Source of the DNA: Candidatus Vogelbacteria bacterium
GTDB taxonomy: Bacteria; Patescibacteriota; Minisyncoccia; Phycocordibacterales; XYD1-FULL-46-19
Direction of reading: 5' to 3'
Length of the DNA: 11,833 nt
NCBI GenBank assembly: GCA_026395035.1
Contig: JAPLZN010000129.1
Coordinates: 1 to 11,833, forward strand
The translations under genes were made by a program, and so were the position numbers. The notes below the pieces were generated by a model. That model searched no databases and was not told the DNA's origin. It saw only the letters and a list, made by a program, of their open reading frames with translations. This document shows, piece by piece, positions 1 through 11,833 of the stretch (position 1 is the first letter of the stretch; each line of letters opens with the position of its first letter).

Positions 1-1725
1 TTGCTTGTTTCCCTCACCTTGGCCACTGTTACCTCTGTTCGGGCGGGCAGCCTCTCGCCACTCACGGGCCCCGGCGCGAGCGGTTATACACTTTCCAATA
101 TTTATGATCGCCTAACTTCTAATGCCTCCGCTACAGCCGGCGATCACCCCTTTGCTCCGTCTGGTGCGCCGGCTGGTTCATTCCACACCCTGACCGAAAT
201 TTATAATTCCATTCCCACAATTGATGCCAGCAAACTTTTAACCAGCGCCACCTATCTGGGTGTAACCGGCACCTACGATGTCACAAATCTCACTGTCGGC
301 AATGTTAAAAGCGGCACTACTTTTGGCGCCGGGCAGACCGGCACCTTGTTGCCCAATGGCGGTACAGCCACGGCGGCTGATGTGTTCAATGGAAAAACCG
401 CGAACTTGACCGATGACTGGTCGCTCGATTCCGGTACCCTAAATTTGGCCTGCAATACCGCTACTTTTGACGGCACAGGCAATAACGTCGCTGATGGCTA
501 CGACGGTGCGGGTGACGGCACTAATCGCTGGTGTATAAAAGCAAGCACTAATTCGGCTGTGGCGGCTAATATTCTGTCCGGTAAAAAAGCTTGGGTAGAT
601 GGTGTGGAAGTTTCCGGCACAATGGCTAACATTGGCCAGCAAATCATCACTCCTGGCCTCACTAGCCAAACAATTACTCAAGGCTACCACGACGGCACTG
701 GTTCGGTAGCGGGGGATGCCGATCTAACGGCCCCCAATATAGCCAACGGCGTAAATATTTTTGGTGTCACTGGCACCGGTTTAATTGCGGCTGGTAATGC
801 GGGGGCTGGTTCTGTTTTAGAAACGGCTACTTTCAGCTCCAGTACGGCAATAAATGTTACGGGAACCATTCCTGTTAAAGCAGGTAATACTCTGGTCGCT
901 TCCAGTTCGGCCCAAGGCACTTCGCTTGTTTTCACAATCCCGATGGGTTATTATAGTGGGGTTAATTCTGTAACTGTGTCAACCAGCTCGACTAATTTTC
1001 TCGCCGCCAATATCAGAAGTGGAACAAACTTGTTCGGCCTCATTGGTACCCTTCCCGTTTTTACCTTTGGTGATGCCAGTTCCAGCTATGTGCTTGGCAC
1101 CGCCTCGGCGTCTGGAACGGCCCTGGTCAATCTATGGAACGGTACGCGCACCGATGGCGGTTTTGCCGGCGGTTCGCAGGCCAATGCGGGAGTAGATGAT
1201 TACAACAATGCCAAAACACCAGCCACCGATCGTTATGTCGGCCCAGCGGGCTGGACTCAATGCAATTCGAGCGCTTATGATGCCGTTACGAACCCTGGCG
1301 GAAATTATTGCAATACGGGCGAATCTGGAGCTGATGCCAAAGACAATTCCACCGGTCAAGTCTGGAGCCTGCCTTGCAATGGAACTGGCTGTTCTTCTTT
1401 CTCCGACGCTTCACCGGGGGCGTATTATTGGGCGGCTACCTCTACTATCAATGCCGGTTTAACCGCGCCCGAACTTTGCTCGGCAGGCGCCCATGGGCGT
1501 TCCGGTTGGACTATTCCGCACCAAAAACAGTTAATGCAAGCCTATATAGACGGTTCTTATGGCAATCTAGAGGCCGCGGGCGTCAGTCGTTACTACTGGT
1601 CCGGCACGACTGTGTCGAACAGTACCGCCAATGCGTGGGTCACCGGCCTGTCTTACGGCGGCACCTACAACACCACGAAGTTGACGGACACCAACTACCT
1701 ACGATGCGTCCGCTCGGCACCGTGA
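1..1725 (+). CDS. DGR target protein: secreted repeat protein with C-terminal DUF1566/C-type-lectin-like variable domain (5' end probably outside window)
   Basis: Likely a secreted or surface-displayed binding protein that the adjacent DGR diversifies. The first ~16 residues (LLVSLTLATVTSVRA) look like the hydrophobic core of a signal peptide. The reading frame is open to base 1, so the TTG there may not be the true start. Residues ~76-350 hold about five degenerate repeats of the form A-x-x-I-x-x-G-x-x-x-F-G-V-T-G-T (for example 76-92, 188-208, 244-260, 335-350), probably beta-rich stalk units. Residues ~434-574 resemble a DUF1566/Lcl C-terminal domain: W503-T-I-P, a Y-Y-W-S-G motif at 531-535 and the terminal R-C-V-R at 568-571, with Cys at 437, 459, 464, 493 and 569 that could form disulfides. 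The variable repeat covers residues 526-573, where TR Asn codons have become S, Y, V, G, T or D. The ligand cannot be predicted from sequence. Confidence 0.88.
   Translation: MLVSLTLATVTSVRAGSLSPLTGPGASGYTLSNIYDRLTSNASATAGDHPFAPSGAPAGSFHTLTEIYNSIPTIDASKLLTSATYLGVTGTYDVTNLTVGNVKSGTTFGAGQTGTLLPNGGTATAADVFNGKTANLTDDWSLDSGTLNLACNTATFDGTGNNVADGYDGAGDGTNRWCIKASTNSAVAANILSGKKAWVDGVEVSGTMANIGQQIITPGLTSQTITQGYHDGTGSVAGDADLTAPNIANGVNIFGVTGTGLIAAGNAGAGSVLETATFSSSTAINVTGTIPVKAGNTLVASSSAQGTSLVFTIPMGYYSGVNSVTVSTSSTNFLAANIRSGTNLFGLIGTLPVFTFGDASSSYVLGTASASGTALVNLWNGTRTDGGFAGGSQANAGVDDYNNAKTPATDRYVGPAGWTQCNSSAYDAVTNPGGNYCNTGESGADAKDNSTGQVWSLPCNGTGCSSFSDASPGAYYWAATSTINAGLTAPELCSAGAHGRSGWTIPHQKQLMQAYIDGSYGNLEAAGVSRYYWSGTTVSNSTANAWVTGLSYGGTYNTTKLTDTNYLRCVRSAP
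1577..1717 (+). repeat. DGR variable repeat (VR)
   Basis: This 141-bp segment aligns without gaps to 3859-3999 (constant offset 2282). It differs at 14 positions: 1586, 1591, 1622, 1639, 1640, 1645, 1646, 1654, 1660, 1661, 1666, 1673, 1687 and 1696. All 14 are A in the template: eight became G, five T and one C. None of the 98 non-A template positions differs. The changes fall in 11 of 15 AAC/AAT codons. The last 21 bases (1697-1717) carry no substitution and end GC-rich (TGCGTCCGCTCGG), which fits an initiation-of-mutagenic-homing site. Identity stops abruptly at both ends. Confidence 0.97.
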
Positions 1726-1726
1726 A

Positions 1727-1758
1727 TTTTTGTCCTAGCGTAATCGCTAGGGCAAAAA
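1727..1758 (+). other. Stem-loop immediately downstream of VR (candidate DGR homing hairpin)
   Basis: A 14-bp stem (1727-1740 pairing with 1745-1758, one G-T wobble) closes a TAAT loop. It starts one base after the target stop codon and 9 bases after VR ends. Known DGRs such as that of Bordetella phage BPP-1 carry a hairpin or cruciform just past VR that helps retrohoming. The T-tract is inside the 5' arm and the A-tract inside the 3' arm, with no T-run after the stem on either strand, so this is not a standard intrinsic terminator, though a role in termination is possible. Confidence 0.65.
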
Positions 1759-1875
1759 ACACGGCTAATTATATTTGAATTTCATTTGCATTTATTTCTT
1801 CGAATTTTTTTTGTTTTCCGCGTGCCAGTGCGGCGTTTTTGATTCTTGTATTGCGATTTTGTCTTTTGTATTTGG

Positions 1876-1902
1876 GTCATTGCGAGCGTAGCGAAGCAAT
1901 CT
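1876..1902. repeat. Dispersed palindromic repeat (CATTGCGAGCG...GCGAAGCAAT type)
   Basis: An imperfect palindrome with ATTGC/GCAAT ends around GAGCGTAGCGA. The type is recognised from bacterial intergenic repeats that give spurious translations such as HCERSEAI. A short related piece (CGCATTGCTTCGCAC) lies near 3786-3800. No coding role is apparent. Confidence 0.55.
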
Positions 1903-1949
1903 TAATTTTGCGTTTTTTTCGAGTTACCTCCCTAACTTTTTGTATTGCC

Positions 1950-2043
1950 ATACCGGACTCAGGTCCCGGTTTTCACCGGGATAAACTCCGTCCGGTATCC
2001 AGGCCCGCATTTCGTCATTCCCGCGCAGGCGGGAATCCATGAC
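1950..2043. repeat. Composite palindromic repeats between target gene and Bro-like gene
   Basis: Two units sit side by side. The first has 9-bp outer arms (ATACCGGAC at 1950-1958 with GTCCGGTAT at 1990-1998) enclosing CCCGG/CCGGG (1965-1969, 1976-1980). The second (2014-2043) starts GTCATTCCCGC and ends GGGAATCCATGAC, with a CCCGC-GCAG-GCGGG hairpin. Related units occur at about 3469, 3682, 4051, 5568, 7776 and 8971. The rest of the 362-base gap (1726-2087) is T-rich sequence with no gene I can support. Confidence 0.75.
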
Positions 2044-2050
2044 ATTTTTT

Positions 2051-2080
2051 TTATCATGTTTTTTCAGAATGTGATAAAAT
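2051..2080 (+). promoter_or_regulatory. Candidate promoter of the Bro/DinD-like gene
   Basis: An extended -10 box, TGATAAAAT (TAAAAT at 2075-2080), lies 7 bases before the ATG. A weak -35 (TTATCA, 2051-2056) is 18 bases upstream. The same nine-base box occurs before the 5764 gene. The spacing puts transcription start almost on the ATG and there is no Shine-Dalgarno, so the mRNA may be leaderless. Confidence 0.4.
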
Positions 2081-2087
2081 ATTACAA

Positions 2088-2939
2088 ATGAAAAAACAAT
2101 CAAAAAATAAAGCAATCGCAATCTTTGAGGGCAATCAAATACGTCGCCATTGGGACGATGAAAAGGAATTGTGGTATTTTGCTGTTTCTGATGTTGTCGC
2201 TGTTTTAACAAAAAGTGCCGATCCGGTCGCTTATTGGAGAAAATTAAAGGAAAGATTGTTAAAAGAAGGCGGAAATGAAACCGTGACAAAATGTCACGGT
2301 TTGAAAATGACAGCACCTGATGGCAAAATGCGTCTTATTGATGTCGCTGATACTGAAGTGATGCTCCGTCTTATTCAGTCGATCCCGTCACCCAATGCTG
2401 AACCATTCAAGCTTTGGTTGGCCCGTGTCGGTTATGAGCGATTGGAAGAAACTGCTGATCCGGAGTTAGCTATCAACCGTGCCCTAAAAACATATCTGCA
2501 AAAAGGTTATAGCCAAGAATGGATCAATCAAAGGCTTAAAAGCATTGAGATTCGCAAAGCTTTAACTGATGAATGGGAAAAGCGAGGGGCAAAAGAGGGT
2601 TTGGAATTTGCTATTTTGACGAATGAAATTACCAAAGCATGGACCGGTATGACGACGAAAGAGTATAAGAATTTAAAAGGCTTAAAGAAAGAAAATTTGC
2701 GTGACAATATGACTAATCTGGAATTGGTTTTGAATATGTTGGCGGAAACGGCCACAACTGAAATTTCCAATAAACGAGAACCAAAAGATTTGGATGAAAA
2801 TAAAGCCGTGGCAAATGAAGGCGGAAGCGTGGCCGGCAACGCTAGGCGTGAAATAGAATCTAAGACTGGTAATAAAATAATCACCAGCAAAAACGCTAAA
2901 AATTTACATAGTAAAGATGAGCCAAAGAAATTAAAATAA
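2088..2939 (+). CDS. Bro-N / DinD-like protein (phage antirepressor-type)
   Basis: A 283-aa protein with an N-terminal Bro-N (prophage antirepressor) domain at ~8-125. Visible marks are I-R-R-H-W and W-Y-F-A-V-S-D-V-V at 18-37, Y49-W-R-K-L-K, C69-H-G-L-K and D78-G-K-M-R, the stretch L-I-Q-S-I-P-S-P-N-A-E-P-F-K (95-108), and W110-L-A-x-V-G. The C-terminal half (~130-275) resembles the DinD-type tail, with G171-L-E-F-A-I-L-T-N-E-I and A-N-E-G-G-S-V-A-G-N-A-R at 242-253, then a basic end. Bro-N proteins usually bind DNA or act as antirepressors, and E. coli DinD is SOS-induced. The exact role here is unknown. It lies between the DGR target gene and avd, convergent with avd, with 87 bases between the two stops. 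Whether it controls the DGR is inference only. Confidence 0.85.
   Translation: MKKQSKNKAIAIFEGNQIRRHWDDEKELWYFAVSDVVAVLTKSADPVAYWRKLKERLLKEGGNETVTKCHGLKMTAPDGKMRLIDVADTEVMLRLIQSIPSPNAEPFKLWLARVGYERLEETADPELAINRALKTYLQKGYSQEWINQRLKSIEIRKALTDEWEKRGAKEGLEFAILTNEITKAWTGMTTKEYKNLKGLKKENLRDNMTNLELVLNMLAETATTEISNKREPKDLDENKAVANEGGSVAGNARREIESKTGNKIITSKNAKNLHSKDEPKKLK
2278..2302. repeat. Perfect 11-bp inverted repeat inside the Bro-like gene
   Basis: AAACCGTGACA (2278-2288), spacer AAA, TGTCACGGTTT (2292-2302). It encodes the conserved Bro-N stretch E-T-V-T-K-C-H-G-L-K. It could be an operator-like site or mRNA hairpin, or a by-product of conserved protein sequence. Confidence 0.8.
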
Positions 2940-3026
2940 TCGAGAGTAAATTAAGAAGTAGTCTTCTGGCGGGTGAAGTACCTTACAGAGGTGTACGCTT
3001 AGTCCTAACGTTGATTGAGCGGCATC

Positions 3027-3386
3027 CTAAATGGGTGCTGTTTGTTGTTTCCTCGCCCAATCCAGCCATCCTATCAATTGAGTAGAAATTTCTTCCAGTT
3101 GCCGGGCAAAAGATTCAAAATGTTTAAGCCCTAAAATTTTTAGATCACAGGCTAGACGAAGATGAATTCTCAATTGTTCGAGACAAATCGCCATCTCCTC
3201 CAATGTCGTTGTTTTATTATCCAACGAATTGGCCTTTACGACCGAATCCATTAGACAAGAACTTTGCAACTTAATTTTTTGACCTAGTGTATAGCGATAT
3301 TCTCGGGGAAATTGGCGAGTAGTTTTGTAGATTTCGAGTGTTAACTTGTAGGTGAGTTGAAAAATTGGCAGGTTATTATAACGCAT
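3027..3386 (-). CDS. avd: DGR accessory variability determinant (Avd)
   Basis: A 119-aa protein matching the Avd four-helix-bundle family, which in characterised DGRs forms a pentameric, positively charged barrel that binds the reverse transcriptase and template RNA and is needed for retrohoming. Visible marks: L-P-I-F-Q near the start (6-10), F26-P-R-E-Y-R-Y-T-L-G-Q (26-36), the L-E-x-L-R-I-H-L-R-L-A-x-D-L helix (69-82) and the terminal I-x-x-Q-L-I-G-W-L segment. Length is typical for the family. I chose the ATG at 3386-3384 because the longer frame upstream is translation of a palindromic repeat. No clear Shine-Dalgarno sits right before this ATG; an AGAGGAG lies ~50 bases upstream. It shares the minus strand with the RT, with TR in between. 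Confidence 0.9.
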   Translation of the reverse strand: MRYNNLPIFQLTYKLTLEIYKTTRQFPREYRYTLGQKIKLQSSCLMDSVVKANSLDNKTTTLEEMAICLEQLRIHLRLACDLKILGLKHFESFARQLEEISTQLIGWLDWARKQQTAPI

Positions 3387-3468
3387 TCCGTTAATATAAT
3401 AACTCAGTTTACTGTTAATGTTAAATAAATCTTCTCCTCTGCGAAATTTATCGAAGTTTTTATTTGCA

Positions 3469-3544
3469 TTGTCATTCCCACTTAGGCGGTAATCTAGGTT
3501 TTTGGTTGCATATTTCTGATTTCCCGCTTGTGTGGGAATGACAA
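3469..3544. repeat. MITE-like palindromic element with 13-bp terminal inverted repeats
   Basis: TTGTCATTCCCAC (3469-3481) is perfectly inverted as GTGGGAATGACAA (3532-3544), giving a 76-bp element. It lies in the upstream region of avd, whose start is at 3386. No transposase is present in the window, so mobility, if any, would need help in trans. Confidence 0.8.
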
Positions 3545-3568
3545 AGAATAAATAAATTGTGGTATATT
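3538..3568 (+). promoter_or_regulatory. Weak candidate promoter for the plus-strand TR transcript
   Basis: The TR RNA must be made from the plus strand, but the flanking DGR genes are on the minus strand, so a plus-strand promoter is expected upstream of 3859. The best I see is ATGACA (3538-3543), a 19-base spacer and TATATT (3563-3568). The -35 lies at the outer edge of the palindromic element. The spacing is poor and the site is speculative. Confidence 0.2.
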
Positions 3569-3858
3569 TAAATCTATAGAAAAGATTCGGGAGAGTCGGA
3601 ATTTCGCCGCTTGCGGGCGGCGGGAGCGCGCTTTGATCCATTGCGGCCTTGCCTGGTTGGAAGGCATGAATTCTTTGTGTTTGTCATTCCGGGCTTGACC
3701 GGAATCCAGGATTGAATTTTGCGGTTTAATCCTGGACCCCGTTCTGCTACGGGGTGACACAATACAATTATTTCTAACCCCAGATCGCATTGCTTCGCAC
3801 TTCGCCCTAGGCGAGGGCCGAACAAGGAGAATTTCTTTAAACGGCAAGGCATTATCTT
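3545..3858 (+). other. Intergenic leader region upstream of TR
   Basis: There is no gene I can support. It holds a GC-rich hairpin (CGCCGC at 3605-3610 with GCGGCG at 3617-3622), the palindromic element at 3682-3759 and a small TCGCC/GGCGA hairpin at 3802-3814. An AAGGAGA at ~3824-3830 is not followed by a usable reading frame. If TR is transcribed from a promoter near 3540, these structures would form the 5' part of the template RNA. Confidence 0.4.
3682..3759. repeat. 78-bp palindromic repeat element upstream of TR
   Basis: The ends TGTCA and TGACA are inverted. Inside are CCAGGATT (3706-3713) with AATCCTGG (3728-3735), a TTCCGG/CCGGAA stem at the left and CCCCGT/ACGGGG at the right. It is the same family as the elements at 3469, 5568 and 8971. 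Confidence 0.8.
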
Positions 3859-3999
3859 CGGGCGTCAATCGTAACTACTGGTCCGGCACGACTGTGTCGA
3901 ACAATACCGCCAATGCGTGGAACACCAACCTGTCTAACGGCAACACCAACAACAACACGAAGTTGACGAACACCAACAACCTACGATGCGTCCGCTCGG
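3859..3999 (+). ncRNA. DGR template repeat (TR), core of the template RNA
   Basis: The non-coding 141-bp donor for VR. 43 of 141 bases are A, mostly in AAC/AAT triplets in register with VR codons (15 Asn codons), so substitution at the first two codon positions gives broad amino-acid choice and never a stop from AAY. All 14 differences from VR are at these A bases. The sense that shows A-mutagenesis is the plus strand, so the RNA must be transcribed on plus, antisense to the RT and avd. TR ends 188 bases from the RT stop codon. The 3' end (TGCGTCCGCTCGG) is identical to VR, then diverges at 4000. Confidence 0.96.
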
Positions 4000-4050
4000 A
4001 AATGGGCGTAAAAGGCCATTTGGCTCTCCCGAATCTTTTGTATATTGCCC

Positions 4051-4090
4051 TTGTCATTCCAGGCTCAGGTCCCCGTTTTCACGGGGATAT
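4051..4090. repeat. Partial palindromic repeat downstream of TR
   Basis: TTGTCATTCC at 4051-4060 is followed by a CCCCGT...ACGGGG hairpin (4071-4085), close in sequence to the unit at 1950-1998. No matching right-hand terminal repeat is seen, so this looks like a partial copy. Another fragment (CCGGCGGGAATCTAGG) at 4177-4192 runs into the RT stop codon at 4190-4188. Confidence 0.6.
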
Positions 4091-4121
4091 AACTAGGTAC
4101 AATATAAGCTTCCTCGGCTCG

Positions 4122-4150
4122 GAAATGTGAAAGAAATACTTTCCCATTTC
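4122..4150 (+). other. Stem-loop between TR and the RT gene
   Basis: Arms GAAATGTGAAAG (4122-4133) and CTTTCCCATTTC (4139-4150) pair over 12 positions with one mismatch, loop AAATA. GCTCGGAAATG precedes and overlaps the left arm and also occurs at the TR 3' boundary (3995-4005). It could be a structured 3' part of the TR RNA or lie in the RT-avd transcript. Confidence 0.45.
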
Positions 4151-4187
4151 ACTCGCCTTATTGTCGCTTATAAACTCCGGCGGGAAT

Positions 4188-5516
4188 CTAGGTCTTTGTT
4201 TTCTTTTGGATAATGGTTTCCGATATCGGCCAGTCTTTGTTTCTTTCTTCCTGACATTTCTTTATAAAATCTGGTTTGATTTGAAAAGCGATTAATTCGT
4301 GCGGATTAGCCAGGTCGTCAATTTCTTTTGTTTCTAGATAATCTCTAATTAACCCAAAATTTTTACTCCATAATTTATATCTGAGCTTGAAAGTATTGGC
4401 GTGGCGGAAAAATCCAAAATAGGAATTTACCGTGGCTAAAATCTTTTCTATTTTTTCTAGCGGTGCTTCTTGATCGGCAAAGGGAAGTAATAATTGGCCA
4501 GTCTTTTTGTTGTTCGGGCTAGGAGGCCCATTCACCAATTCTTGATTAATTAAAAAAAGTTTTCGCTTAAATGCCCTTACTACTCGAGGTCGAACAAGCA
4601 CTCGACCAGGTTTTACGATATACCCTAGCCAATCAACTCCCTTATCGACCGGTTGGAGTATTTGCTTTTTAAAATTTAATTCAAGCCCCAGTCGTTCTTT
4701 GACAAAAGTATTAATTTGACCGACCCAGGCTTTTAATTGTTCTTTGTCTTTTGATAAGAATAAAATATCGTCGACATAACGTATATAGTAGGCACTTTTT
4801 AACTGGCGTTTGGCGAATTGATCCAGTTCGTTGAGATAAACATTGGCAAAAAATTGGGAGGTTAGATTGCCGATCGGCAGGCCCTGATTCTTGGGAACAT
4901 GGAACAGTGATTTATGCGGTGGGATTCGGTCGAAAAGTGCTTTGTCGCTCTTGCTCGTAAAATCTAAGGTTGGATCATTGAAAATAATGAGTTTGGTTAG
5001 CCAAATTAGTTCGGGATCTTTTATGAATTTGCTTATTTGAGCAAATAGAATATCTTTTTGCAGACTCATAAAGAAGCCCTTGATATCCAGATGAAGAAAA
5101 TAAGCCTTTTCACGGCCATTTTGCGTTATCTGACGTAGACATTTTTTAAGGTAATTTAGTGACGGATGGATTCCTTTGCCCCGTCGGCAGGCAAAAGATT
5201 GGGCGATAAATTTTGGTTCAAAAATTGGTTCTAGAAAATTGTATAACAAATGGTGGACAACCCGATCTCGAAAAGTGGCGGCAAAAACTTCCCGTAGGGT
5301 TGGGGAGGTTACGACAAAACAGATTGAACGGCTGATCTTGTAAGATTTGCTCTGTAACTCTCGCTCTAATTTTAGAATCTCCGCTTCCAAATTCAATTCA
5401 AATTTGGCGGCGTGGTAGGTGTGGCGTTTATTTTCTCTGCAGTCTAAATAAGCTCGATAGAGCCTTTGAAAATCAAATAAACTGCCGGGATCGTCTCGGG
5501 GGGGGGGTGACTTCAT
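4188..5516 (-). CDS. DGR reverse transcriptase
   Basis: A 442-aa reverse transcriptase that should copy TR RNA into cDNA with errors at adenines, for transfer into VR. Domains in order: R-D-R-V-V-H-H-L-L near 83-91, Q106-S-F-A-C-R-R-G-K-G (motif 1/2 region), catalytic D143 in H-L-D-I-K-G-F-F, the DGR-type motif G212-L-P-I-G-N-L-T-S-Q221 (the I-G-x-x-x-S-Q form that separates DGR RTs from group II and retron RTs), catalytic Y247-V-D-D250, and W296-L-G-Y-I. It lacks the maturase and endonuclease domains of intron-encoded RTs. The ATG at 5516-5514 is the only usable in-frame start, since homology begins around residue 13. Codons 4-7 contain ten consecutive C, a slippage-prone tract. The stop lies inside a palindromic-repeat fragment. 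It probably shares expression with avd. Confidence 0.96.
   Translation of the reverse strand: MKSPPPRDDPGSLFDFQRLYRAYLDCRENKRHTYHAAKFELNLEAEILKLERELQSKSYKISRSICFVVTSPTLREVFAATFRDRVVHHLLYNFLEPIFEPKFIAQSFACRRGKGIHPSLNYLKKCLRQITQNGREKAYFLHLDIKGFFMSLQKDILFAQISKFIKDPELIWLTKLIIFNDPTLDFTSKSDKALFDRIPPHKSLFHVPKNQGLPIGNLTSQFFANVYLNELDQFAKRQLKSAYYIRYVDDILFLSKDKEQLKAWVGQINTFVKERLGLELNFKKQILQPVDKGVDWLGYIVKPGRVLVRPRVVRAFKRKLFLINQELVNGPPSPNNKKTGQLLLPFADQEAPLEKIEKILATVNSYFGFFRHANTFKLRYKLWSKNFGLIRDYLETKEIDDLANPHELIAFQIKPDFIKKCQEERNKDWPISETIIQKKTKT
5498..5507 (-). repeat. C10 homopolymer in the start of the RT gene
   Basis: Ten G on plus, ten C on the coding strand, covering codons 4-7 (S-P-P-P-R). One base lost gives a stop after 22 codons; one gained gives a stop after 14. 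It is a candidate phase-variation switch, but tracts like this are also prone to assembly error. Confidence 0.7.
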
Positions 5517-5567: not shown

Positions 5568-5690
5568 GTCATTCCCGGGAATCTAGGCTTTTGGTTTGAT
5601 AGCCTCTGGTTGGATACCGGCCTCCGCCGGTATGACAATGCAATGGGCAGGGCATCTGTGTCCCCGTTGCAGAACGGGGTCCAGGCCTGT
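5568..5690. repeat. Cluster of palindromic repeat units upstream of the surface-gene run
   Basis: GTCATTCCCGGGAATCTAGG (5568-5587) is followed by ATACCGGC-CTCC-GCCGGTAT (5614-5633, perfect 8-bp arms) and CCCCGTT-GCAG-AACGGGG (5662-5679). The GCAG loop is shared with units at 2014 and 9044 although the stems differ in sequence. Confidence 0.75.
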
Positions 5691-5763: not shown

Positions 5764-7671
5764 ATGCTGAAAAGAACGCGACCTAAGCGATATTTTGCAT
5801 CTATAATTTTCACTGCCATCGTTTTGGTTGCAGTATCTTTGGGTGTAAATAATGTTTTGGCATCAGAAACGGAGGGTACGATTGATGCTTCGAATAAGCA
5901 TGCGTGGTCAGAAAATGTGGGCTGGGTAGATTTTGGTACAACCGAAGGCAATGTCCATGTCACTGATTCGGTTCTAACTGGTTATGCTTGGGGCGAAAAT
6001 GTGGGCTGGATATCCTTGAATTGTTCCAATGACACCTCGTGTGGGACGGTGGATTATAAAGTAGTCAATGATAGCAACGGCAATCTTTCCGGTCAGGCTT
6101 GGTCGGAAAATGTCGGCTGGATAATTTTCAATCCATCCGGCGGGGGAGTGTCAATTAATTCCGCCGGAGAATTTCAGGGGACAGCCTGGGGAGAGACGAC
6201 CGGCTGGATAGTTTTTAATTGCGCCGAAAACAGTTCCTGTTCGGTGGTTAGTTATAAAGTTAAAACTGATTGGCGACCGGTCTCGGCGCGGGGGACTACG
6301 CCTGGGGCGACTCCTGATTCCAGCACCAACACCAGCTCTTCGCATTCTTATGGTTCTATTATTTCCAATTGGGCGCGGTTGCTGGGTTTGAATCAGCCCA
6401 AGATTGGTAGCTCTACTATTTTGTATCCTGAATTGCTGGCGGTAAATCCACTGGTGGAAAAAATTACCAAGAATCCATTGGCGGAAAAGGTAAGAGAAAT
6501 AGTCAAGATCGTCGTACCTGATTTTGTTCAGAATACTTTATCCGGGGGTGAGCCCGTTGTACCTTCCTTGCGTGATTTGTTGCCGAAAAAAGCCCCTCTT
6601 TCATTGCGGGGAAAATGGAATATTATGCCGACCGAAGCTAGTAAATTTGCTCTAGCGCCCTTACCGACCGAAACTCGACTTTTGGCGCAAAAATTTCCCG
6701 AGCTAGGCAAAACTTTTGCTAAAGTTGGGATAAACAGGATGGCCGATGTCGGAAAACTAGCAGCCACTAGTCTGGAATTGCCGGGCTTATCCACTGTTCT
6801 AGGGCTGGCGGAAACAAAGCAGGTCAATGATCGTTTGTTGACGGTGGGAATACCGATTGATCGTCTGTCGGGAACAGCTAAACAAAAACTGCCCAGCGAT
6901 ATCGTTTTTGTCCGTTCATTTGGGGAAACATTGGATATAAATACCAACTTAACTTTTGATAATTTGGGCCACGCTAAACAGCAGATCAATGTTACGACCG
7001 GTAAGTCGCTTAGTTTGGTGGTCAAGCCGGAAGCGCCGGTGCGCGGTGTCAAGGGTTATATTGTTTTAACCAATCAGCCGGATAAAACGGCAATGCGCTT
7101 GCCAATGAGTTCTCTTATGGCCTCGGCGATTTTTGCGGTTCCGAAACTGGCTTACGACCAAGAGCAGCCGATCACCAAAGACACAAAGTTCGTTTTGTCG
7201 TCGTTTGAATATACCGATCCTGATCATGACGGCATCTATACAGCCGAAGTCCAGGCCCCGCAGGTAGCTGGGCAGTATGAAGTAATTACCGTAATGGACT
7301 ACCTTAACCCTAAAATGGGAGCCAAAGAAATTCGGCTGATCGCAGTGGTTGACCCGGAGGGCTATGTTTACACCAAAACTGGCAGCTTGGAGGCGAATGT
7401 TCCCGGTGCGACAGTCTCTCTATTCTGGTTAAACCAAAAGTCGGGTCAATTTGAATTGTGGCCGGCAAAAGAATATATGCAAAAAAATCCCCAACAAACC
7501 AATGTCCGGGGTAATTATTCGTTCTTGGTACCGGAAGGCAAATATTATTTGGCAGTCGGTGCGTCCGGTTATAAACCCTATCAGGGTGAGCAATATGATG
7601 TGGCGGAGGGGAATAGTATTCACGCCAATAATGAGCTAGTCTCAACCGGTTGGGGTTGGATCGAATGGTAA
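5764..7671 (+). CDS. Secreted surface protein with four A-W-x-E-N-V-G-W-type repeats
   Basis: A 635-aa protein. The start at ATG 5764 gives a clear signal peptide: basic MLKRTRPKR, a hydrophobic core (~10-29), then V-L-A-S-E. An in-frame extension upstream runs through repeat DNA and is rejected. Four short repeats lie at ~46-57, 75-87, 112-124 and 141-153, each A-W-(S/G)-E-N-V-G-W-I or close, with Cys pairs at 87/93 and 153/159 that may form disulfides. A Ser/Thr-rich linker follows, then ~350 residues without a recognised family. The last ~105 residues, from G-Y-V-Y-T-K-T-G, look like a carboxypeptidase-regulatory-like or B-type beta-sandwich (P-G-A-T-V-S-L-F, G-N-Y-S-F-L-V-P-E-G-K-Y). Function is unknown; probably an envelope or appendage protein. 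It is the first gene of a same-strand run. Confidence 0.85.
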   Translation: MLKRTRPKRYFASIIFTAIVLVAVSLGVNNVLASETEGTIDASNKHAWSENVGWVDFGTTEGNVHVTDSVLTGYAWGENVGWISLNCSNDTSCGTVDYKVVNDSNGNLSGQAWSENVGWIIFNPSGGGVSINSAGEFQGTAWGETTGWIVFNCAENSSCSVVSYKVKTDWRPVSARGTTPGATPDSSTNTSSSHSYGSIISNWARLLGLNQPKIGSSTILYPELLAVNPLVEKITKNPLAEKVREIVKIVVPDFVQNTLSGGEPVVPSLRDLLPKKAPLSLRGKWNIMPTEASKFALAPLPTETRLLAQKFPELGKTFAKVGINRMADVGKLAATSLELPGLSTVLGLAETKQVNDRLLTVGIPIDRLSGTAKQKLPSDIVFVRSFGETLDINTNLTFDNLGHAKQQINVTTGKSLSLVVKPEAPVRGVKGYIVLTNQPDKTAMRLPMSSLMASAIFAVPKLAYDQEQPITKDTKFVLSSFEYTDPDHDGIYTAEVQAPQVAGQYEVITVMDYLNPKMGAKEIRLIAVVDPEGYVYTKTGSLEANVPGATVSLFWLNQKSGQFELWPAKEYMQKNPQQTNVRGNYSFLVPEGKYYLAVGASGYKPYQGEQYDVAEGNSIHANNELVSTGWGWIEW

Positions 7672-7775: not shown

Positions 7776-7804
7776 GTCATTCCTGCGCAGGGGAATCCAG
7801 GATT
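7776..7804. repeat. Single palindromic repeat unit
   Basis: GTCATTCCTGCGCAGGGGAA followed by TCCAGGATT; the stem has a GCAG-containing centre like the units at 2014 and 5662. It lies between the small membrane frame and the 7846 gene. Confidence 0.65.
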
Positions 7805-7845
7805 AAATCACTAAAAACTAAAATGATAAAAAATAATTTAAAAAT

Positions 7846-8208
7846 ATGCAAAAAACTAGGCTAAGTTTCATTCTAATTGTTCTATTGTTGGCTTCTAATT
7901 TTCTGTGGGGATTTTTCTATTTTATGAATCGATCGGAATTGGTTACCTTGCGCTCGCAAGCCCAAAATCAGGAGACCAACGCGCAAGTCGTAACCTTTAC
8001 TCGTTTGTTTATTAATGACGTACTAAAAGCGCACGGGGAAGTAGTTTTTGATAAACGGCTCGAATTAGAGAATGCGGTACGAGCTTTAAAAGATCAAACG
8101 ATCTTGGCGCAATGGGGTAAATTTATTAACGCCAAGGATGAATTGACCGCGCAGACTGAAGTTAAAAATTTGCTTGGTATGTTGGTTGATAAAATAACGG
8201 TAAAATAA
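7846..8208 (+). CDS. Small membrane-anchored protein of unknown function
   Basis: A 120-aa protein. Residues ~6-27 (LSFILIVLLLASNFLWGFFYF) form one hydrophobic segment after a short basic start, so it is a signal anchor or signal peptide. The rest is a charged, mostly helical soluble domain with no family I recognise (for example L-E-L-E-N-A-V-R-A-L-K-D-Q-T at ~71-84). The ATG at 7846 is preceded by an A-rich stretch and no Shine-Dalgarno. Only 8 bases separate its stop from the next ATG, so it is probably co-transcribed with the Ig-like genes. Confidence 0.7.
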   Translation: MQKTRLSFILIVLLLASNFLWGFFYFMNRSELVTLRSQAQNQETNAQVVTFTRLFINDVLKAHGEVVFDKRLELENAVRALKDQTILAQWGKFINAKDELTAQTEVKNLLGMLVDKITVK

Positions 8209-8216
8209 AAAAAATT

Positions 8217-8942
8217 ATGATAAAAAAGATATTTATATACCTTGCCATCATTTCAATTTTTTCGGGGTATGGACTAATTTCGGCAATTCACGTCGGGGCA
8301 GAGGAAAGCGGGACCGCTACTACTACCGACGAATTGGTTCCCAATATAATTTCTTCCTCTACAGATTCAGTATTGGTTGCTAGTTCTAGTCTAGATGCTT
8401 TGGGCGAGCCACTTGCTACAAGTAGCGACTCATTGTCGAAGATAGGAGAGGCAACAACGACAGCAACGACTTCGGATCAAATTAGCTCGGATGATATTGA
8501 GGTGGCGGCAACTTCCACGGGTGATATCAATAACAGAGTACAAAAAAGTGCCACCTCGACTGACATCGGGGAAGTGGAAAAAGAGGCGACAAGCACCTTA
8601 CCAGTTGTGCAACTAAAATCATTAGAGGAGAATATCGCTCCAGCCGGAGAAATTGTTTCAGTCTCTCCAAATTCTGTGGTTAATGGCGTTGTCCCGATTA
8701 AAATTCAGATATCGGATTTAGGTTCGGGGCTAGCTAATATTCTCTTTTATCTTTCAGACAACAATGGTACTTTCTTGGGTGAAACCAGCCAGCAGGATGC
8801 AGATGGTTTGTACACCATTGAGTGGAATACAAATCGCACCAAGTTTTCAGAATATGGCCCGCATTATCTTTATGCTGCCATTTTAGGGGTTGGAGGTGCG
8901 GCATATAATTCTGCTTGGGTGCCGATTAACGTTGGACGGTAG
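8217..8942 (+). CDS. Secreted Ser/Thr-rich protein with one Ig-like domain
   Basis: A 241-aa protein with an N-terminal signal peptide (MIKKIFIYLAIISIFSGYGL..., cleavage near A-I-H-V-G-A-E-E). Residues ~30-130 are low complexity with repeated A-T-S-T/A-T-T-T tracts, likely an extended stalk. Residues ~142-241 form a bacterial Ig-like beta-sandwich (V-S-V-S-P-N-S-V-V-N-G-V-V-P-I-K-I, later Y-L-Y-A-A-I-L-G). Part of this domain is almost identical to one in the 9114 protein. No anchor or enzyme motif is seen. Likely an exported surface protein acting with its neighbours. There is no clear Shine-Dalgarno. Confidence 0.8.
   Translation: MIKKIFIYLAIISIFSGYGLISAIHVGAEESGTATTTDELVPNIISSSTDSVLVASSSLDALGEPLATSSDSLSKIGEATTTATTSDQISSDDIEVAATSTGDINNRVQKSATSTDIGEVEKEATSTLPVVQLKSLEENIAPAGEIVSVSPNSVVNGVVPIKIQISDLGSGLANILFYLSDNNGTFLGETSQQDADGLYTIEWNTNRTKFSEYGPHYLYAAILGVGGAAYNSAWVPINVGR
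8736..8812 (+). repeat. Near-identical block shared with the 9114 gene (copy 1)
   Basis: 8736-8800 is identical over 65 bases to 9615-9679; extending to 8812 (9691) adds one mismatch. It encodes N-I-L-F-Y-L-S-D-N-N-G-T-F-L-G-E of the Ig-like domain. Flanking domain sequence is clearly less similar, which suggests recent duplication or gene conversion. Confidence 0.9.
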
Positions 8943-8970
8943 AAGATTCCAACCGATGTGACTTATTTTG

Positions 8971-9078
8971 TGTCGTTCCGGGCATGACCCGGAATCCAGA
9001 ATCAAATCACTAAATACAGTTCTGGATTCCCGCCGGAGTTTATCCCCGTGCAGACGGGGACCTGAGTAGGGAATGACA
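8971..9078. repeat. Composite palindromic element with inverted ends
   Basis: TGTCGTTCC at the left and GGAATGACA at the right are inverted with one mismatch. Inside are TTCCGGG/CCCGGAA (8976-8982, 8988-8994), CCAGAA/TTCTGG and CCCCGT-GCAG-ACGGGG (9044-9059). It fills most of the 171-base gap before the 9114 gene and might separate that gene's transcription from the upstream run. Confidence 0.8.
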
Positions 9079-9113
9079 AATGCGGATGCCAAGAATAACA
9101 AAGAAGTTCAATT

Positions 9114-11084
9114 ATGAACAACAATTTTTATAAAATATCAGTATTTACCTTATTTAGTTTTGCCGTTTTGTTTTCTGCCAGTAGTGTCATCGCGGCAATA
9201 AATATAACGGCACCAGGGGAAGGCGAAACATTGTCCGGTCAAACTTCTTTGAGTGCTTTTGCTTCCACAACAGAGGCAAGTACTACTGTCTCTAGTGTTA
9301 TGTTCTATTACCTTTCCGGAACCGACCCTGTTTTGATCGCCGAACAAACTTCAACATCTTCACCAGATAACTATTCTACCGTCTGGGACACATCCAATAT
9401 CTCCGATGGGCCTTACTCTCTTTTTTCTGTAAACTTGGATAGTGTCGGGAATCAATCGACCTCGACCAGTGTAATGGTAAATATCCGTAACGCTATTGAC
9501 CAAAGTCAGCCGAATCCGCCAACTGGTTTTCTTGTTTCTCCTCTCGCTGGTATTACGGCCACGACAACAATACCGATCAGTGTGCAAATTACAGACGCTG
9601 GTTCTGGCTTGGCAAATATTCTCTTTTATCTTTCAGACAACAATGGTACTTTCTTGGGTGAAACCAGCCAGCAGGATGCCGATGGTTTGTATACGATAAA
9701 TTGGAATCCGGAGACTAGTGGGGTGTTAGATGGAGAACATTATCTTTATACTGCCCTGCTTGGGACGGATGGGGGAGCATCTAATCCGCCTTGGGTCTTG
9801 ATAAAAACGGATAATAATAAACCCGTTGCTTCGTTTACTTATGATCCAAGCGGGCCGACAAATGGCAACGTAACGGCCACTCTTATTCCCAATCGACCGG
9901 TTACCATTTTAAATAATAGTGGAACTACGACTTATACATTTATCGATAATGGGTCGTTTCGGTTTGATTTTGTCGATGAATTAGGAAGAACTGGTTCGGC
10001 CACAGCGACGGTGTCTAGTATTGATCGCACCGCCCCAGTCATTCCTGGCTTAAGCCCAATTGGAGGCAGTTATGTAAATGCCTCGACTTCAATTGTTTTT
10101 CAAGATGCAGATCAGACTACCCCACAATGTTCTCTATTGGGAAGCATTTGGGGTTCTTGCTCAGCAACATCTTTTGGGTCGCTAACTGGTTTTTCGACAC
10201 TGCCCGATGGTCGTTTTACTTTGAATATTAAAGCGATTGACGATGTTGGTAATGAAAGTACGACGAGTGTTGACTACATCAAAGATACTATCACCCCGAC
10301 GATCGTTTCTGCGGAAACTCAAACTAGTCGGTCTATTCTCCTGTCTCTTAATGAAGCGCTCCTAAACGATTCGATTGTATCGCCGCAAAAATCTGATTTG
10401 AGCGTTTTTTCTATCCGCGATGGATCTAGGGTGGATTTGCCGATTGACAATATAATTTACGCTGATAAAAAAATCACAATTAATTTAACTTACGATATTA
10501 AAGCGGGGGATCAAATTAATTATCTTGTTCGGTCAGAAAGCAATCTGTCAGATTTAGCGGGTAACATATTTAACGCCGGGGCAACTTCGACGGGTATTGT
10601 TGTAAATAAACTGCCTGTCCCGCCAATTAGCGTCTCAGTCGTAGCTAATTCTGGCGGCGGAGGCGGGTCGTCCGGGAGCTATGCGGCGAGGATAATCCCA
10701 GCGCCGGTTGTGTTAAATGTTTCGAGCACCACACCTTTTTCTGGCCAAGTTCTTGGTATTGAAACATTTTATTTTTCTCACGATTTAATGTTTCCGATTA
10801 AGAAAGCTGATGTTAGAGAATTACAGAAAAGATTAATGAAGGAGGGTTTTATGGCTACTTCGACTGTCACTAATTACTTTGGGCCAATAACCCTGAACGC
10901 CGTTCGGCGATATCAAAAGATTCATAATTTGCCAATGACGGGCAATCTTGGTCCTAAAACTAGAGCCGTCCTCAATGGCGGGATGACAAGTTCCGTTTAT
11001 CGCCAACTACAGATTGATAATCTGCTCAAAAAAATTCAAAATCTTCAATCTGAACTGGCTTCGTTAAAATTAAAGACCAAATAA
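9114..11084 (+). CDS. Secreted multi-Ig protein with C-terminal peptidoglycan-binding domain
   Basis: A 656-aa protein with signal peptide 1-28 (cleavage near S-V-I-A-A). Ig-like modules follow: ~30-125 (N-I-T-A-P-G-E-G-E-T-L-S-G start, D-S-V-G-N end), ~140-235 (shares the identical block with the 8217 protein), then further domains at ~240-305, ~310-395 (D-D-V-G-N-E-S-T) and a SbsA-type Ig-like ~397-500. A Gly/Ser-rich linker lies near 515. Residues ~554-623 match a peptidoglycan-binding type 1 domain (V-R-E-L-Q-K-R-L, Y-F-G-P-I-T-L-N-A-V-R-R-Y-Q, G-N-L-G-P-K-T-R-A-V-L-N). A short coiled coil closes the protein (~629-653). It probably ties surface structures to the cell wall. The start has only a weak AGAAG upstream. 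Confidence 0.88.
   Translation: MNNNFYKISVFTLFSFAVLFSASSVIAAINITAPGEGETLSGQTSLSAFASTTEASTTVSSVMFYYLSGTDPVLIAEQTSTSSPDNYSTVWDTSNISDGPYSLFSVNLDSVGNQSTSTSVMVNIRNAIDQSQPNPPTGFLVSPLAGITATTTIPISVQITDAGSGLANILFYLSDNNGTFLGETSQQDADGLYTINWNPETSGVLDGEHYLYTALLGTDGGASNPPWVLIKTDNNKPVASFTYDPSGPTNGNVTATLIPNRPVTILNNSGTTTYTFIDNGSFRFDFVDELGRTGSATATVSSIDRTAPVIPGLSPIGGSYVNASTSIVFQDADQTTPQCSLLGSIWGSCSATSFGSLTGFSTLPDGRFTLNIKAIDDVGNESTTSVDYIKDTITPTIVSAETQTSRSILLSLNEALLNDSIVSPQKSDLSVFSIRDGSRVDLPIDNIIYADKKITINLTYDIKAGDQINYLVRSESNLSDLAGNIFNAGATSTGIVVNKLPVPPISVSVVANSGGGGGSSGSYAARIIPAPVVLNVSSTTPFSGQVLGIETFYFSHDLMFPIKKADVRELQKRLMKEGFMATSTVTNYFGPITLNAVRRYQKIHNLPMTGNLGPKTRAVLNGGMTSSVYRQLQIDNLLKKIQNLQSELASLKLKTK
9615..9691 (+). 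repeat. Near-identical block shared with the 8217 gene (copy 2)
   Basis: Partner of 8736-8812, at a constant offset of 879 bases, in the second Ig-like domain of the peptidoglycan-binding protein. Confidence 0.9.
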
Positions 11085-11779
11085 TTATTGGGAGGCCAGT
11101 TTTTGTCCGTGGTGCGCGCATGGGTGGGAGCCCGCCGGTACTCCGGCGGGCTGGGGCAAGCACACCCTGTCTTTATGATCTGATCCAACAAAGCACCCCG
11201 TGCAGACGACGAAGGGCATTTCCGCTAGGGCTGGCCTGATTAAATGAACGCCGCCGTGGTCGAAGGCACAGGATATTAAAGAAGCGAAGCGGGTTAACTA
11301 ACCTTTCTGATGAAAACAGGGCGAGGGGTTGGCGACTCCGGTCGGCCGAGCCCTGCCGAGGCGAGGAGGAGCTGGGGAGAGGGTTCGCCCTCTCCCCATA
11401 AAGAGTGCGCCTGGCCGCCTTCAAGCGGCCTAAGGGCGCAGACCGAGCAGGATAGGCGCGAGTAGCCCTAGCGGAAATGCCCGACGGCGGATGCCGAGGG
11501 TGCGATTTAGCAGGCCAACCGGTCGAATACCACGTACTCTCGAGAGGAAGCGCTCCGGCCCGACCCCGGCTGGACCGGAAGAAGAAGCGAATGTAAATAA
11601 ACCACAACAAAATATATCACTCCTAGCTTCTTCTGCAGGGCCAAGCCGGGGTTCCCCGCCTAGCCTTGTTCCGTTTCCTCATCCGCACTCAACCCCCCCC
11701 GCGAAAAGATTTAATTGGGCACGGAACAGGGCGCAGGCGGTGGCCGGCCGAGAGGCCGGAGGGCCGGAGCGCGACACGG
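11085..11779. ncRNA. GC-rich, highly structured non-coding region (candidate large RNA, strand unknown)
   Basis: About 695 bases, far more GC-rich than the neighbouring genes, with no reading frame I can support. Perfect hairpins: 11129-11138/11143-11152 (10 bp, TACT loop), 11373-11383/11388-11398 (11 bp, TTCG loop), 11406-11411 with 11435-11440 enclosing 11413-11418/11425-11430, and 11744-11749/11754-11759 (6 bp, GAGA loop). Longer-range pairings: 11214-11232 with 11464-11482 (19 bp) and 11663-11674 with 11721-11732 (12 bp, one G-U). TTCG and GAGA loops are typical of folded RNA. No RNase P, tmRNA, rRNA or tRNA signature was found. It could equally be a cluster of DNA repeats. Confidence 0.35.
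11214..11482. repeat. 19-bp perfect inverted repeat spanning 231 bases
   Basis: GGGCATTTCCGCTAGGGCT (11214-11232) and its exact reverse complement at 11464-11482. It encloses the TTCG hairpin and the two-part hairpin at 11406-11440. It fits a closing long-range helix of a structured RNA or the ends of a small inserted element. Confidence 0.85.
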
Positions 11780-11833
11780 TTAAACTTCTTCATCTTCATT
11801 GTTTTCAAAATGTGTTCGGATTTCATCATATAA
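11780..11833 (-). CDS. C-terminal fragment of a gene entering from outside the window
   Basis: On the minus strand the frame from the window edge reads 17 residues, L-Y-D-E-I-R-T-H-F-E-N-N-E-D-E-E-V, then TAA at 11782-11780. The AT-rich composition and acidic tail look like a genuine protein end, in contrast to the GC-rich DNA next to it. Too short to assign a family. Confidence 0.4.
   Translation of the reverse strand, partial: LYDEIRTHFENNEDEEV

What the first reader, a model, noticed from the sequence alone, without database searches (positions are those of the whole stretch)
1577..3999. Complete DGR with strictly adenine-specific TR-to-VR changes
VR (1577-1717) and TR (3859-3999) align over 141 bases with 14 differences, all at TR adenines (14 of 43 A changed, 0 of 98 non-A). 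They affect 11 of 15 Asn codons in the lectin-like end of a secreted protein. RT and Avd are both present and look intact, so the system is probably active or recently active.
Basis: partly seen in the sequence, partly recalled or inferred. Interest (0 to 1): 0.85.

Follow-up and report, generated by a model that had tools for sequence, protein, structure and literature searches.

The report
Retroelement paired with lectin-like protein

Summary
VR (1577-1717) and TR (3859-3999) align ungapped over 141 nt with 14 differences, all at TR adenines (chance about 1e-8), changing 11 of 15 Asn codons in the target's Lcl_C (C-lectin) end. RT and Avd frames are intact. This is a diversity-generating retroelement (DGR), by inference of Patescibacteria; activity is not shown.

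Not in the finding: (1) RT is convergent to TR, as in 8 of 10 loci of its RT clade (inverted-RT cassettes are in print). (2) A structured RNA leader (3572-3858) precedes TR. A covariance model from five relatives finds it here at E 2.9e-12; its 4 hits in 397 genomes are all at DGRs (two were training members). Helix P5 ends 8 nt before TR: 56/56 cells paired in 7 loci, 8/8 pairs with double changes. Helix P1 joins the leader to a segment about 20 nt after TR, enclosing the template; it is clear at that place in 5 loci. (3) Here the P3 loop holds a REP-like insertion, Avd is inverted, and a multi-copy Bro-N/DinD-like gene sits between target and Avd.

Verdict: an ordinary DGR by its parts; a new variant in template-RNA anatomy.

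The parts
1..1725 (+). target gene (5' end cut by the contig end), C-lectin (Lcl_C) C-terminal domain
1577..1717 (+). variable repeat VR
1727..1758 (+). 14-bp stem with TAAT loop just after the target's stop; place fits the post-VR stem-loop of known DGRs, but it also looks like a terminator
   Evidence: -28.4 kcal/mol for the 75-nt stretch folded
2088..2939 (+). Bro-N / DinD-like gene between target and Avd; multi-copy gene in the phylum, not counted as a DGR part
3027..3386 (-). Avd (119 aa), inverted relative to the nine clade relatives
3572..3858 (+). structured leader of the template RNA; ends at the base before TR
   Evidence: R1 E 2.9e-12, matching 3572-3673 only; R2 75.6 bits, 3572-3858, but 3572-3673 with the stricter filters; window not used to build either model
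3575..3600 (+). P1, 5' arm (pairs with 4019-4044)
3602..3624 (+). P2 hairpin
3646..3653 (+). P5, 5' strand GCCTTGCC
3655..3779 (+). P3 stem (3655-3662 with 3772-3779) whose loop holds a roughly 110-nt insertion with REP-like palindromes
3793..3822 (+). P4 hairpin (approximate)
3843..3850 (+). P5, 3' strand GGCAAGGC, 8 nt before TR
3859..3999 (+). template repeat TR
4019..4044 (+). P1, 3' arm
4188..5516 (-). DGR reverse transcriptase, convergent to TR
   Evidence: (YVDD, IGNLTSQ)
5764..7671 (+). neighbour gene (repeats rich in GW, CarboxypepD_reg-like below its cut-off); a relative lies in 13 of the other 50 DGR loci read
7846..8208 (+). neighbour gene of 120 aa; a relative lies in 7 of the other 50 loci read

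Best explanation
A diversity-generating retroelement. A plus-strand transcript holding leader, TR and trailer is folded by P1 to P5. RT with Avd copies TR into cDNA, misreading template A, and the cDNA replaces VR in the target, changing Asn codons of a C-lectin domain. SHOWN: A-only TR/VR differences, open RT and Avd frames, C-lectin domain, conserved leader structure with compensatory changes, P1 pairing around TR. INFERRED: the transcript itself, that RT/Avd bind the leader, that P5 just before TR stops reverse transcription at the template's 5' boundary, that P1 brings the 3' priming side to the leader, and that the varied face binds surfaces of other cells or viruses.
For: (A-only changes). 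(RT, Avd, target). (same set in relatives). P5 on a MAFFT alignment of 7 loci, 56/56 cells paired (0/500 shuffles reach it), 8/8 pairs with a change on both sides (2/500), covariation score 1.01 against 0.53 (0/500), slid versions 37.5-58.9% paired; 30 of 47 predicted pairs with a kept double change (5 loci). R1 hits 4 of 397 genomes, all at DGR loci (2 of the 4 were in training). R2, 14 hits in 13 of 379 genomes, 12 of 14 beside an RT or TR/VR pair (4 of the 12 were in training); leader x trailer duplex, native total -818.7 against permuted -660.7 (sd 24.5), 0/5000 in 21 nearer loci. P1 pairs in 77 of 80 cells of 5 loci, 9 of 16 positions with a double change; window RNA 3572-4046 folds with P1, P2, P5 unaided, z -7.2.
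Against: No transcript, read or strain data. Avd is inverted and a REP-like element sits in P3 of this copy. The promoter scan finds no plus-strand match between 2900 and the leader, and no excess overall (4 found, 6.1 expected). P1 at its place is shown in 5 loci only; 10 of the 21 nearer loci have no leader-trailer stem beyond shuffles (more than 1/30). P5 does not beat shuffles locus by locus in the nearer group (1 of 21 passes, with another helix); its support is covariation, and one measure, the number of pair types (10), is not above shuffles (13.3). arms were chosen after inspection and A4 is fitted to the structure. permutations do not control base composition. The z is helped by the inserted palindromes. 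Two R2 hits (G550:C21, C17) have no RT in their 1,750-base loci, and one weak R2 match (L099:4206-4372, E 0.041) is not at TR. Avd has no solved relative by sequence at E 0.01, the target none at E 0.1.
Confidence: 0.88

Rival explanations
1. A recently decayed DGR: proteins and repeats remain, but Avd inversion and the REP-like insertion in the template RNA leader have cut it off.
For: Avd on the minus strand here, co-directional with TR in the nine clade relatives; insertion in P3; REP-like query with 29 matches in the genome.
Against: RT and Avd frames open; P1, P2, P3 and P5 kept, P5 a perfect 8-bp match; the insertion lies in a hairpin loop; VR differs from TR only at A, with no later non-A drift.
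Confidence: 0.15
2. The conserved leader is not part of the template RNA but a separate regulatory or DNA element (for example a cis-regulator of the convergent RT, or a cruciform).
For: No RNA data; inverted repeats can act as DNA; RT runs towards it.
Against: It ends at TR-1, keeps its place and orientation before TR while RT lies elsewhere (L040, L087 against window), and G-U pairs occur within P5.
Confidence: 0.12
3. TR and VR are an ordinary duplication that diverged.
For: Two copies 2.3 kb apart.
Against: 14 of 14 changes at A, P 1e-8; RT and Avd alongside.
Confidence: 0.005

Closest known systems
Bordetella phage BPP-1 DGR (AY029185, fetched)
   Same: RT family (nearest solved RT 8ub7, E 1.7e-38; that this series is the BPP-1 RT is recalled), Avd, A-specific TR/VR, C-lectin target and stem-loop after VR (these for BPP-1 partly recalled)
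   Different: BPP-1 has bbp7 (avd), TR and brt in one direction, avd ending next to TR and 144 nt between TR and brt. Here RT is convergent and the structured part lies before TR. The same stem scan gives no leader-trailer helix beyond shuffles in BPP-1 (60-nt trailer 47.0 against 46.0 +/- 4.8; 144-nt 74.0 against 65.7 +/- 9.3); it has a perfect 8-bp helix before TR that is not beyond shuffles (25/200); R2 finds nothing there at E 1.
DGR clade 2 of Roux et al. 2021 (PMC8144416; passages seen)
   Same: Patescibacteria-only, cell-encoded DGRs
   Different: Placement in that paper's tree was not tested here. My term searches of its main text found no 'orientation', 'RNA structure' or 'non-coding'.
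Cassette group G5 (RT inverted) of PMC6642488 (passages seen)
   Same: RT orientation inverted relative to the prototype
   Different: Groups there are defined by order, orientation and number of TR, VR and RT only
Second DGR of the same genome (G000:C9, L039)
   Same: A-only TR/VR changes, Avd-like protein, a helix before TR
   Different: RT 36% identical, order VR-TR-avd(-)-RT(+), one VR in trans on C101

Membership tests
Diversity-generating retroelement | TR and VR near-identical with substitutions confined to TR adenines | tested here: met
   14 of 14 at A
Diversity-generating retroelement | RT of the DGR type (SQ in place of SP in motif 4, YxDD; motif rule recalled) | tested here: met
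   IGNLTSQ and YVDD; best solved match 8ub7
Diversity-generating retroelement | Avd or other accessory protein | tested here: met
   bAvd above its cut-off; NCBIfam Avd model below its cut-off (69.6 of 80)
Diversity-generating retroelement | VR at the 3' end of a C-lectin target | tested here: met
Diversity-generating retroelement | stem-loop after VR | tested here: inconclusive
   strong stem in the window, which could equally be a terminator; of the other 15 loci folded, L087 and L092 have a strong stem close after VR, the rest vary
Diversity-generating retroelement | mutagenic homing activity | not testable with these tools
   no reads or strains
BPP-1-type template RNA (structured spacer after TR) | long spacer between TR and a co-directional RT | tested here: not met
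   RT convergent; in L033, L034 and L035 the RT stop lies within 12 nt of the TR end; conserved structure lies before TR
Rfam families | any family matching the leader | tested here: not met
   no match at the leader up to E 1 in window, L033, L034, L040, L098, L039, L046, L048, L105, L121 (the one window match, MIR5512 at 3454-3559, lies on REP-like repeats before the leader)

The most novel reading that the evidence does not exclude
In this Patescibacteria lineage the template is a self-framed RNA: a conserved 5' leader, not the 3' spacer used by BPP-1, is the RT/Avd landing site; P5 sets the 5' limit of the cDNA and P1 brings the priming end to it. TR is thereby an RNA module independent of where RT lies, which would explain why RT could flip or move.
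Probability: 0.4. Interest if true: 0.72.

Novelty: new variant of a known kind. Interest (0 to 1): 0.52.

Why it matters
As far as I recall, DGR template RNA has been dissected mainly in one phage system (BPP-1; its model is stated in PMC12875486, passages seen). A leader supported by covariation in a cell-encoded lineage gives base-level predictions for how the template is delimited and recognised, a model that found DGR loci from the RNA alone, and a compact system to test in E. coli.

Tried and rejected
Bro-N/DinD gene as a DGR accessory: found beside DGRs in the window, L089, L102 and L113, but it matches 83 of 379 genomes, often in several copies (its match list is truncated). Among the matches listed, three (window, G542:C13, G693:C11) lie by a close RT; its nearest relatives (83%, 79%; G448, G535) are in genomes without one. 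Kept as a lead only. Motif YTRCGG before TR as a universal mark: 21 of 36 loci against 17% of background windows; dropped in favour of P5. Viral origin: no relative of RT in viral contigs (three pattern matches, none confirmed). MIR5512 Rfam hit: lies on REP-like repeats, discarded. P5 by single-locus shuffles: 1 of 21 in the nearer group, so not usable alone; 10 of 15 in the distant group, which has its own 12-13-bp helix before TR. The aggregate of TR/VR changes (509 of 521 at A, 36 loci, 26 of them with every change at A) comes from a scan that required at least 75% at A, so it is illustration, not a test. Rows dropped: L088 (same record as L035); L048 (RT under 33%); L094 and L114 (RT pieces under 230 aa), leaving 49 RTs. 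Population variation of VR could not be checked: no metagenome scans were allowed. Papers looked up by DOI from memory (DGR surveys of 2017 and 2018, BPP-1 RNA biochemistry, a survey of structured RNAs) were not held.

Not-in-print statement: the listings showed no paper that I could see to describe a conserved leader before TR in Patescibacteria DGRs; most subscription papers are not held, so this is weak.
Full report
Observation. The alignment is ungapped over 141 nt, with 14 differences, all at TR adenines, and identity falls away on both sides. 11 of 15 Asn codons are changed.

Architecture. I fetched loci of RT relatives from sets of 61, 397 and 379 genomes that overlap and from named contigs, and read 51 loci, the window among them, for RT, Avd, TR and VR. 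TR/VR pairs were found in 36. In the window, L033, L034, L035, L086, L098, L099 and L100 the RT runs against TR and lies after it; L040 and L087 have RT before TR and co-directional. These ten form one RT clade (support 88/90); window, L034, L098 and L033 form an inner clade (99/95). Avd is co-directional with TR in the other nine; only the window has it inverted. REP-like inverted repeats (2011-2035 and 3521-3545; one REP-like query has 29 matches in the genome) enclose the Bro-N and Avd genes, so inversion between them is a plausible cause (inference). A relative of the gene 5764-7671 lies in 13, and of 7846-8208 in 7, of the other 50 loci.

Template RNA. The 5' flanks of TR in relatives share motifs. 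Leader and trailer pair better in their own locus than when permuted among the 21 nearer loci (0 of 5000), less clearly among 15 distant loci (263 of 5000; base composition is not controlled). Against dinucleotide-shuffled trailers, 35 loci were scanned: 0 of 30 shuffles reach the native stem in window, L033, L034, L040, L086, L091 and L092; 1 of 30 in L098, L099, L103, L113 and the distant L120; the other 23 do not stand out. The stems of L040 and L099 lie at another place; those of L091, L092, L103 and L113 were not aligned to P1. At the P1 place, window, L033, L034, L086 and L098 pair in 77 of 80 cells with double changes at 9 of 16 positions; I chose these arms after inspection.

Leader helices. 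RNAalifold on a plain MAFFT alignment of five leaders, window excluded, gives P2, P3, P4 and P5 with 30 of 47 pairs showing a kept double change. It also draws a short local hairpin that competes with P1. P5, read on a MAFFT alignment of seven loci, pairs in 56 of 56 cells (0 of 500 shuffles), all 8 pairs with double changes (2 of 500 shuffles); sliding the partner drops pairing to 37.5-58.9%; the count of pair types is not above shuffles (10 against 13.3). With nine leaders aligned to the model the whole structure pairs in 89.4% of cells (shuffled 67.3%) and 37 of 46 pairs have double changes (that alignment leans to the structure).

Search with the model. R1, built from the five, finds the window's leader (3572-3673, up to the insertion) at E 2.9e-12 and gives four hits in 397 genomes, all at DGRs, two of them training members. 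Over 52 sources (the 51 loci and BPP-1) it also finds L086, L035, L099, L104 and, weakly, L100. R2, built from nine, places the window leader at 3572-3858, ending at the base before TR, and also finds L089; one weak match in L099 (E 0.041) is not at TR, and no TR is known for L104. In 379 genomes R2 gives 14 hits in 13 genomes at E 0.1; 12 lie beside an RT or a TR/VR pair (4 of these were in training), two (G550) do not within the DNA held. No Rfam family matches the leaders searched. The window's RNA 3572-4046 alone folds with P1, P2 and P5, z -7.2, helped by the inserted palindromes. Its P3 loop holds a roughly 110-nt insertion with REP-like palindromes.

Mechanism. By the BPP-1 model (PMC12875486, introduction passage) a spacer after TR recruits RT-Avd and primes cDNA, and a sequence in avd before TR ends it. 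In this clade the RT stop comes within 12 nt after TR in L033, L034 and L035 on the other strand, and the conserved structure lies before TR. I infer that the leader recruits RT-Avd, P5 ends the cDNA, and P1 joins the priming side. This is untested.

Known or new. DGRs in Patescibacteria and RT-inverted cassettes are in print (PMC8144416 passages; PMC6642488 passages). The leader and its helices did not appear in the listings of my searches, but key papers are not held. I rate it a new variant of a known kind.

Noticed in passing
L039 (G000:C9) and G000:C101:8346-8472: A second, distantly related DGR in the same genome with one VR in cis and one in trans; each VR has 17 changes, all at TR adenines, and the two VRs differ at 13 sites, all TR adenines.
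   Followed up: partly
window 2088-2939; L089, L102, L113: Bro-N/DinD-like gene recurs beside DGRs in four loci although it is a scattered multi-copy gene.
   Followed up: partly
window 1945-2040, 3471-3545, 3683-3760, 4051-4201, 5569-5690, 7780-7810, 8970-9080: REP-like GTCATTCCCGC...GCGGGAATC palindromes in many of the intergenic stretches; 29 matches in the genome to one query, itself included.
   Followed up: partly
distant DGR loci such as L039, L046, L105, L118, L120, L121: Their own 12-13-bp helix just before TR, beyond shuffles (at most 10/200) in 10 of 15 loci: perhaps a second leader class.
   Followed up: partly
window 8694-8828 and 9573-9707: 135-nt repeat, 82% identical, in two neighbouring genes (the second copy overlaps the Big_7 Ig-like match).
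   Followed up: no
window 11090-11833: Stretch with several inverted repeats and a partial copy in G000:C118; its short frames were not searched for families.
   Followed up: partly
window 5764-7671 and 7846-8208: Two genes of unknown role with relatives beside DGRs in other genomes; may be partners of the target.
   Followed up: no
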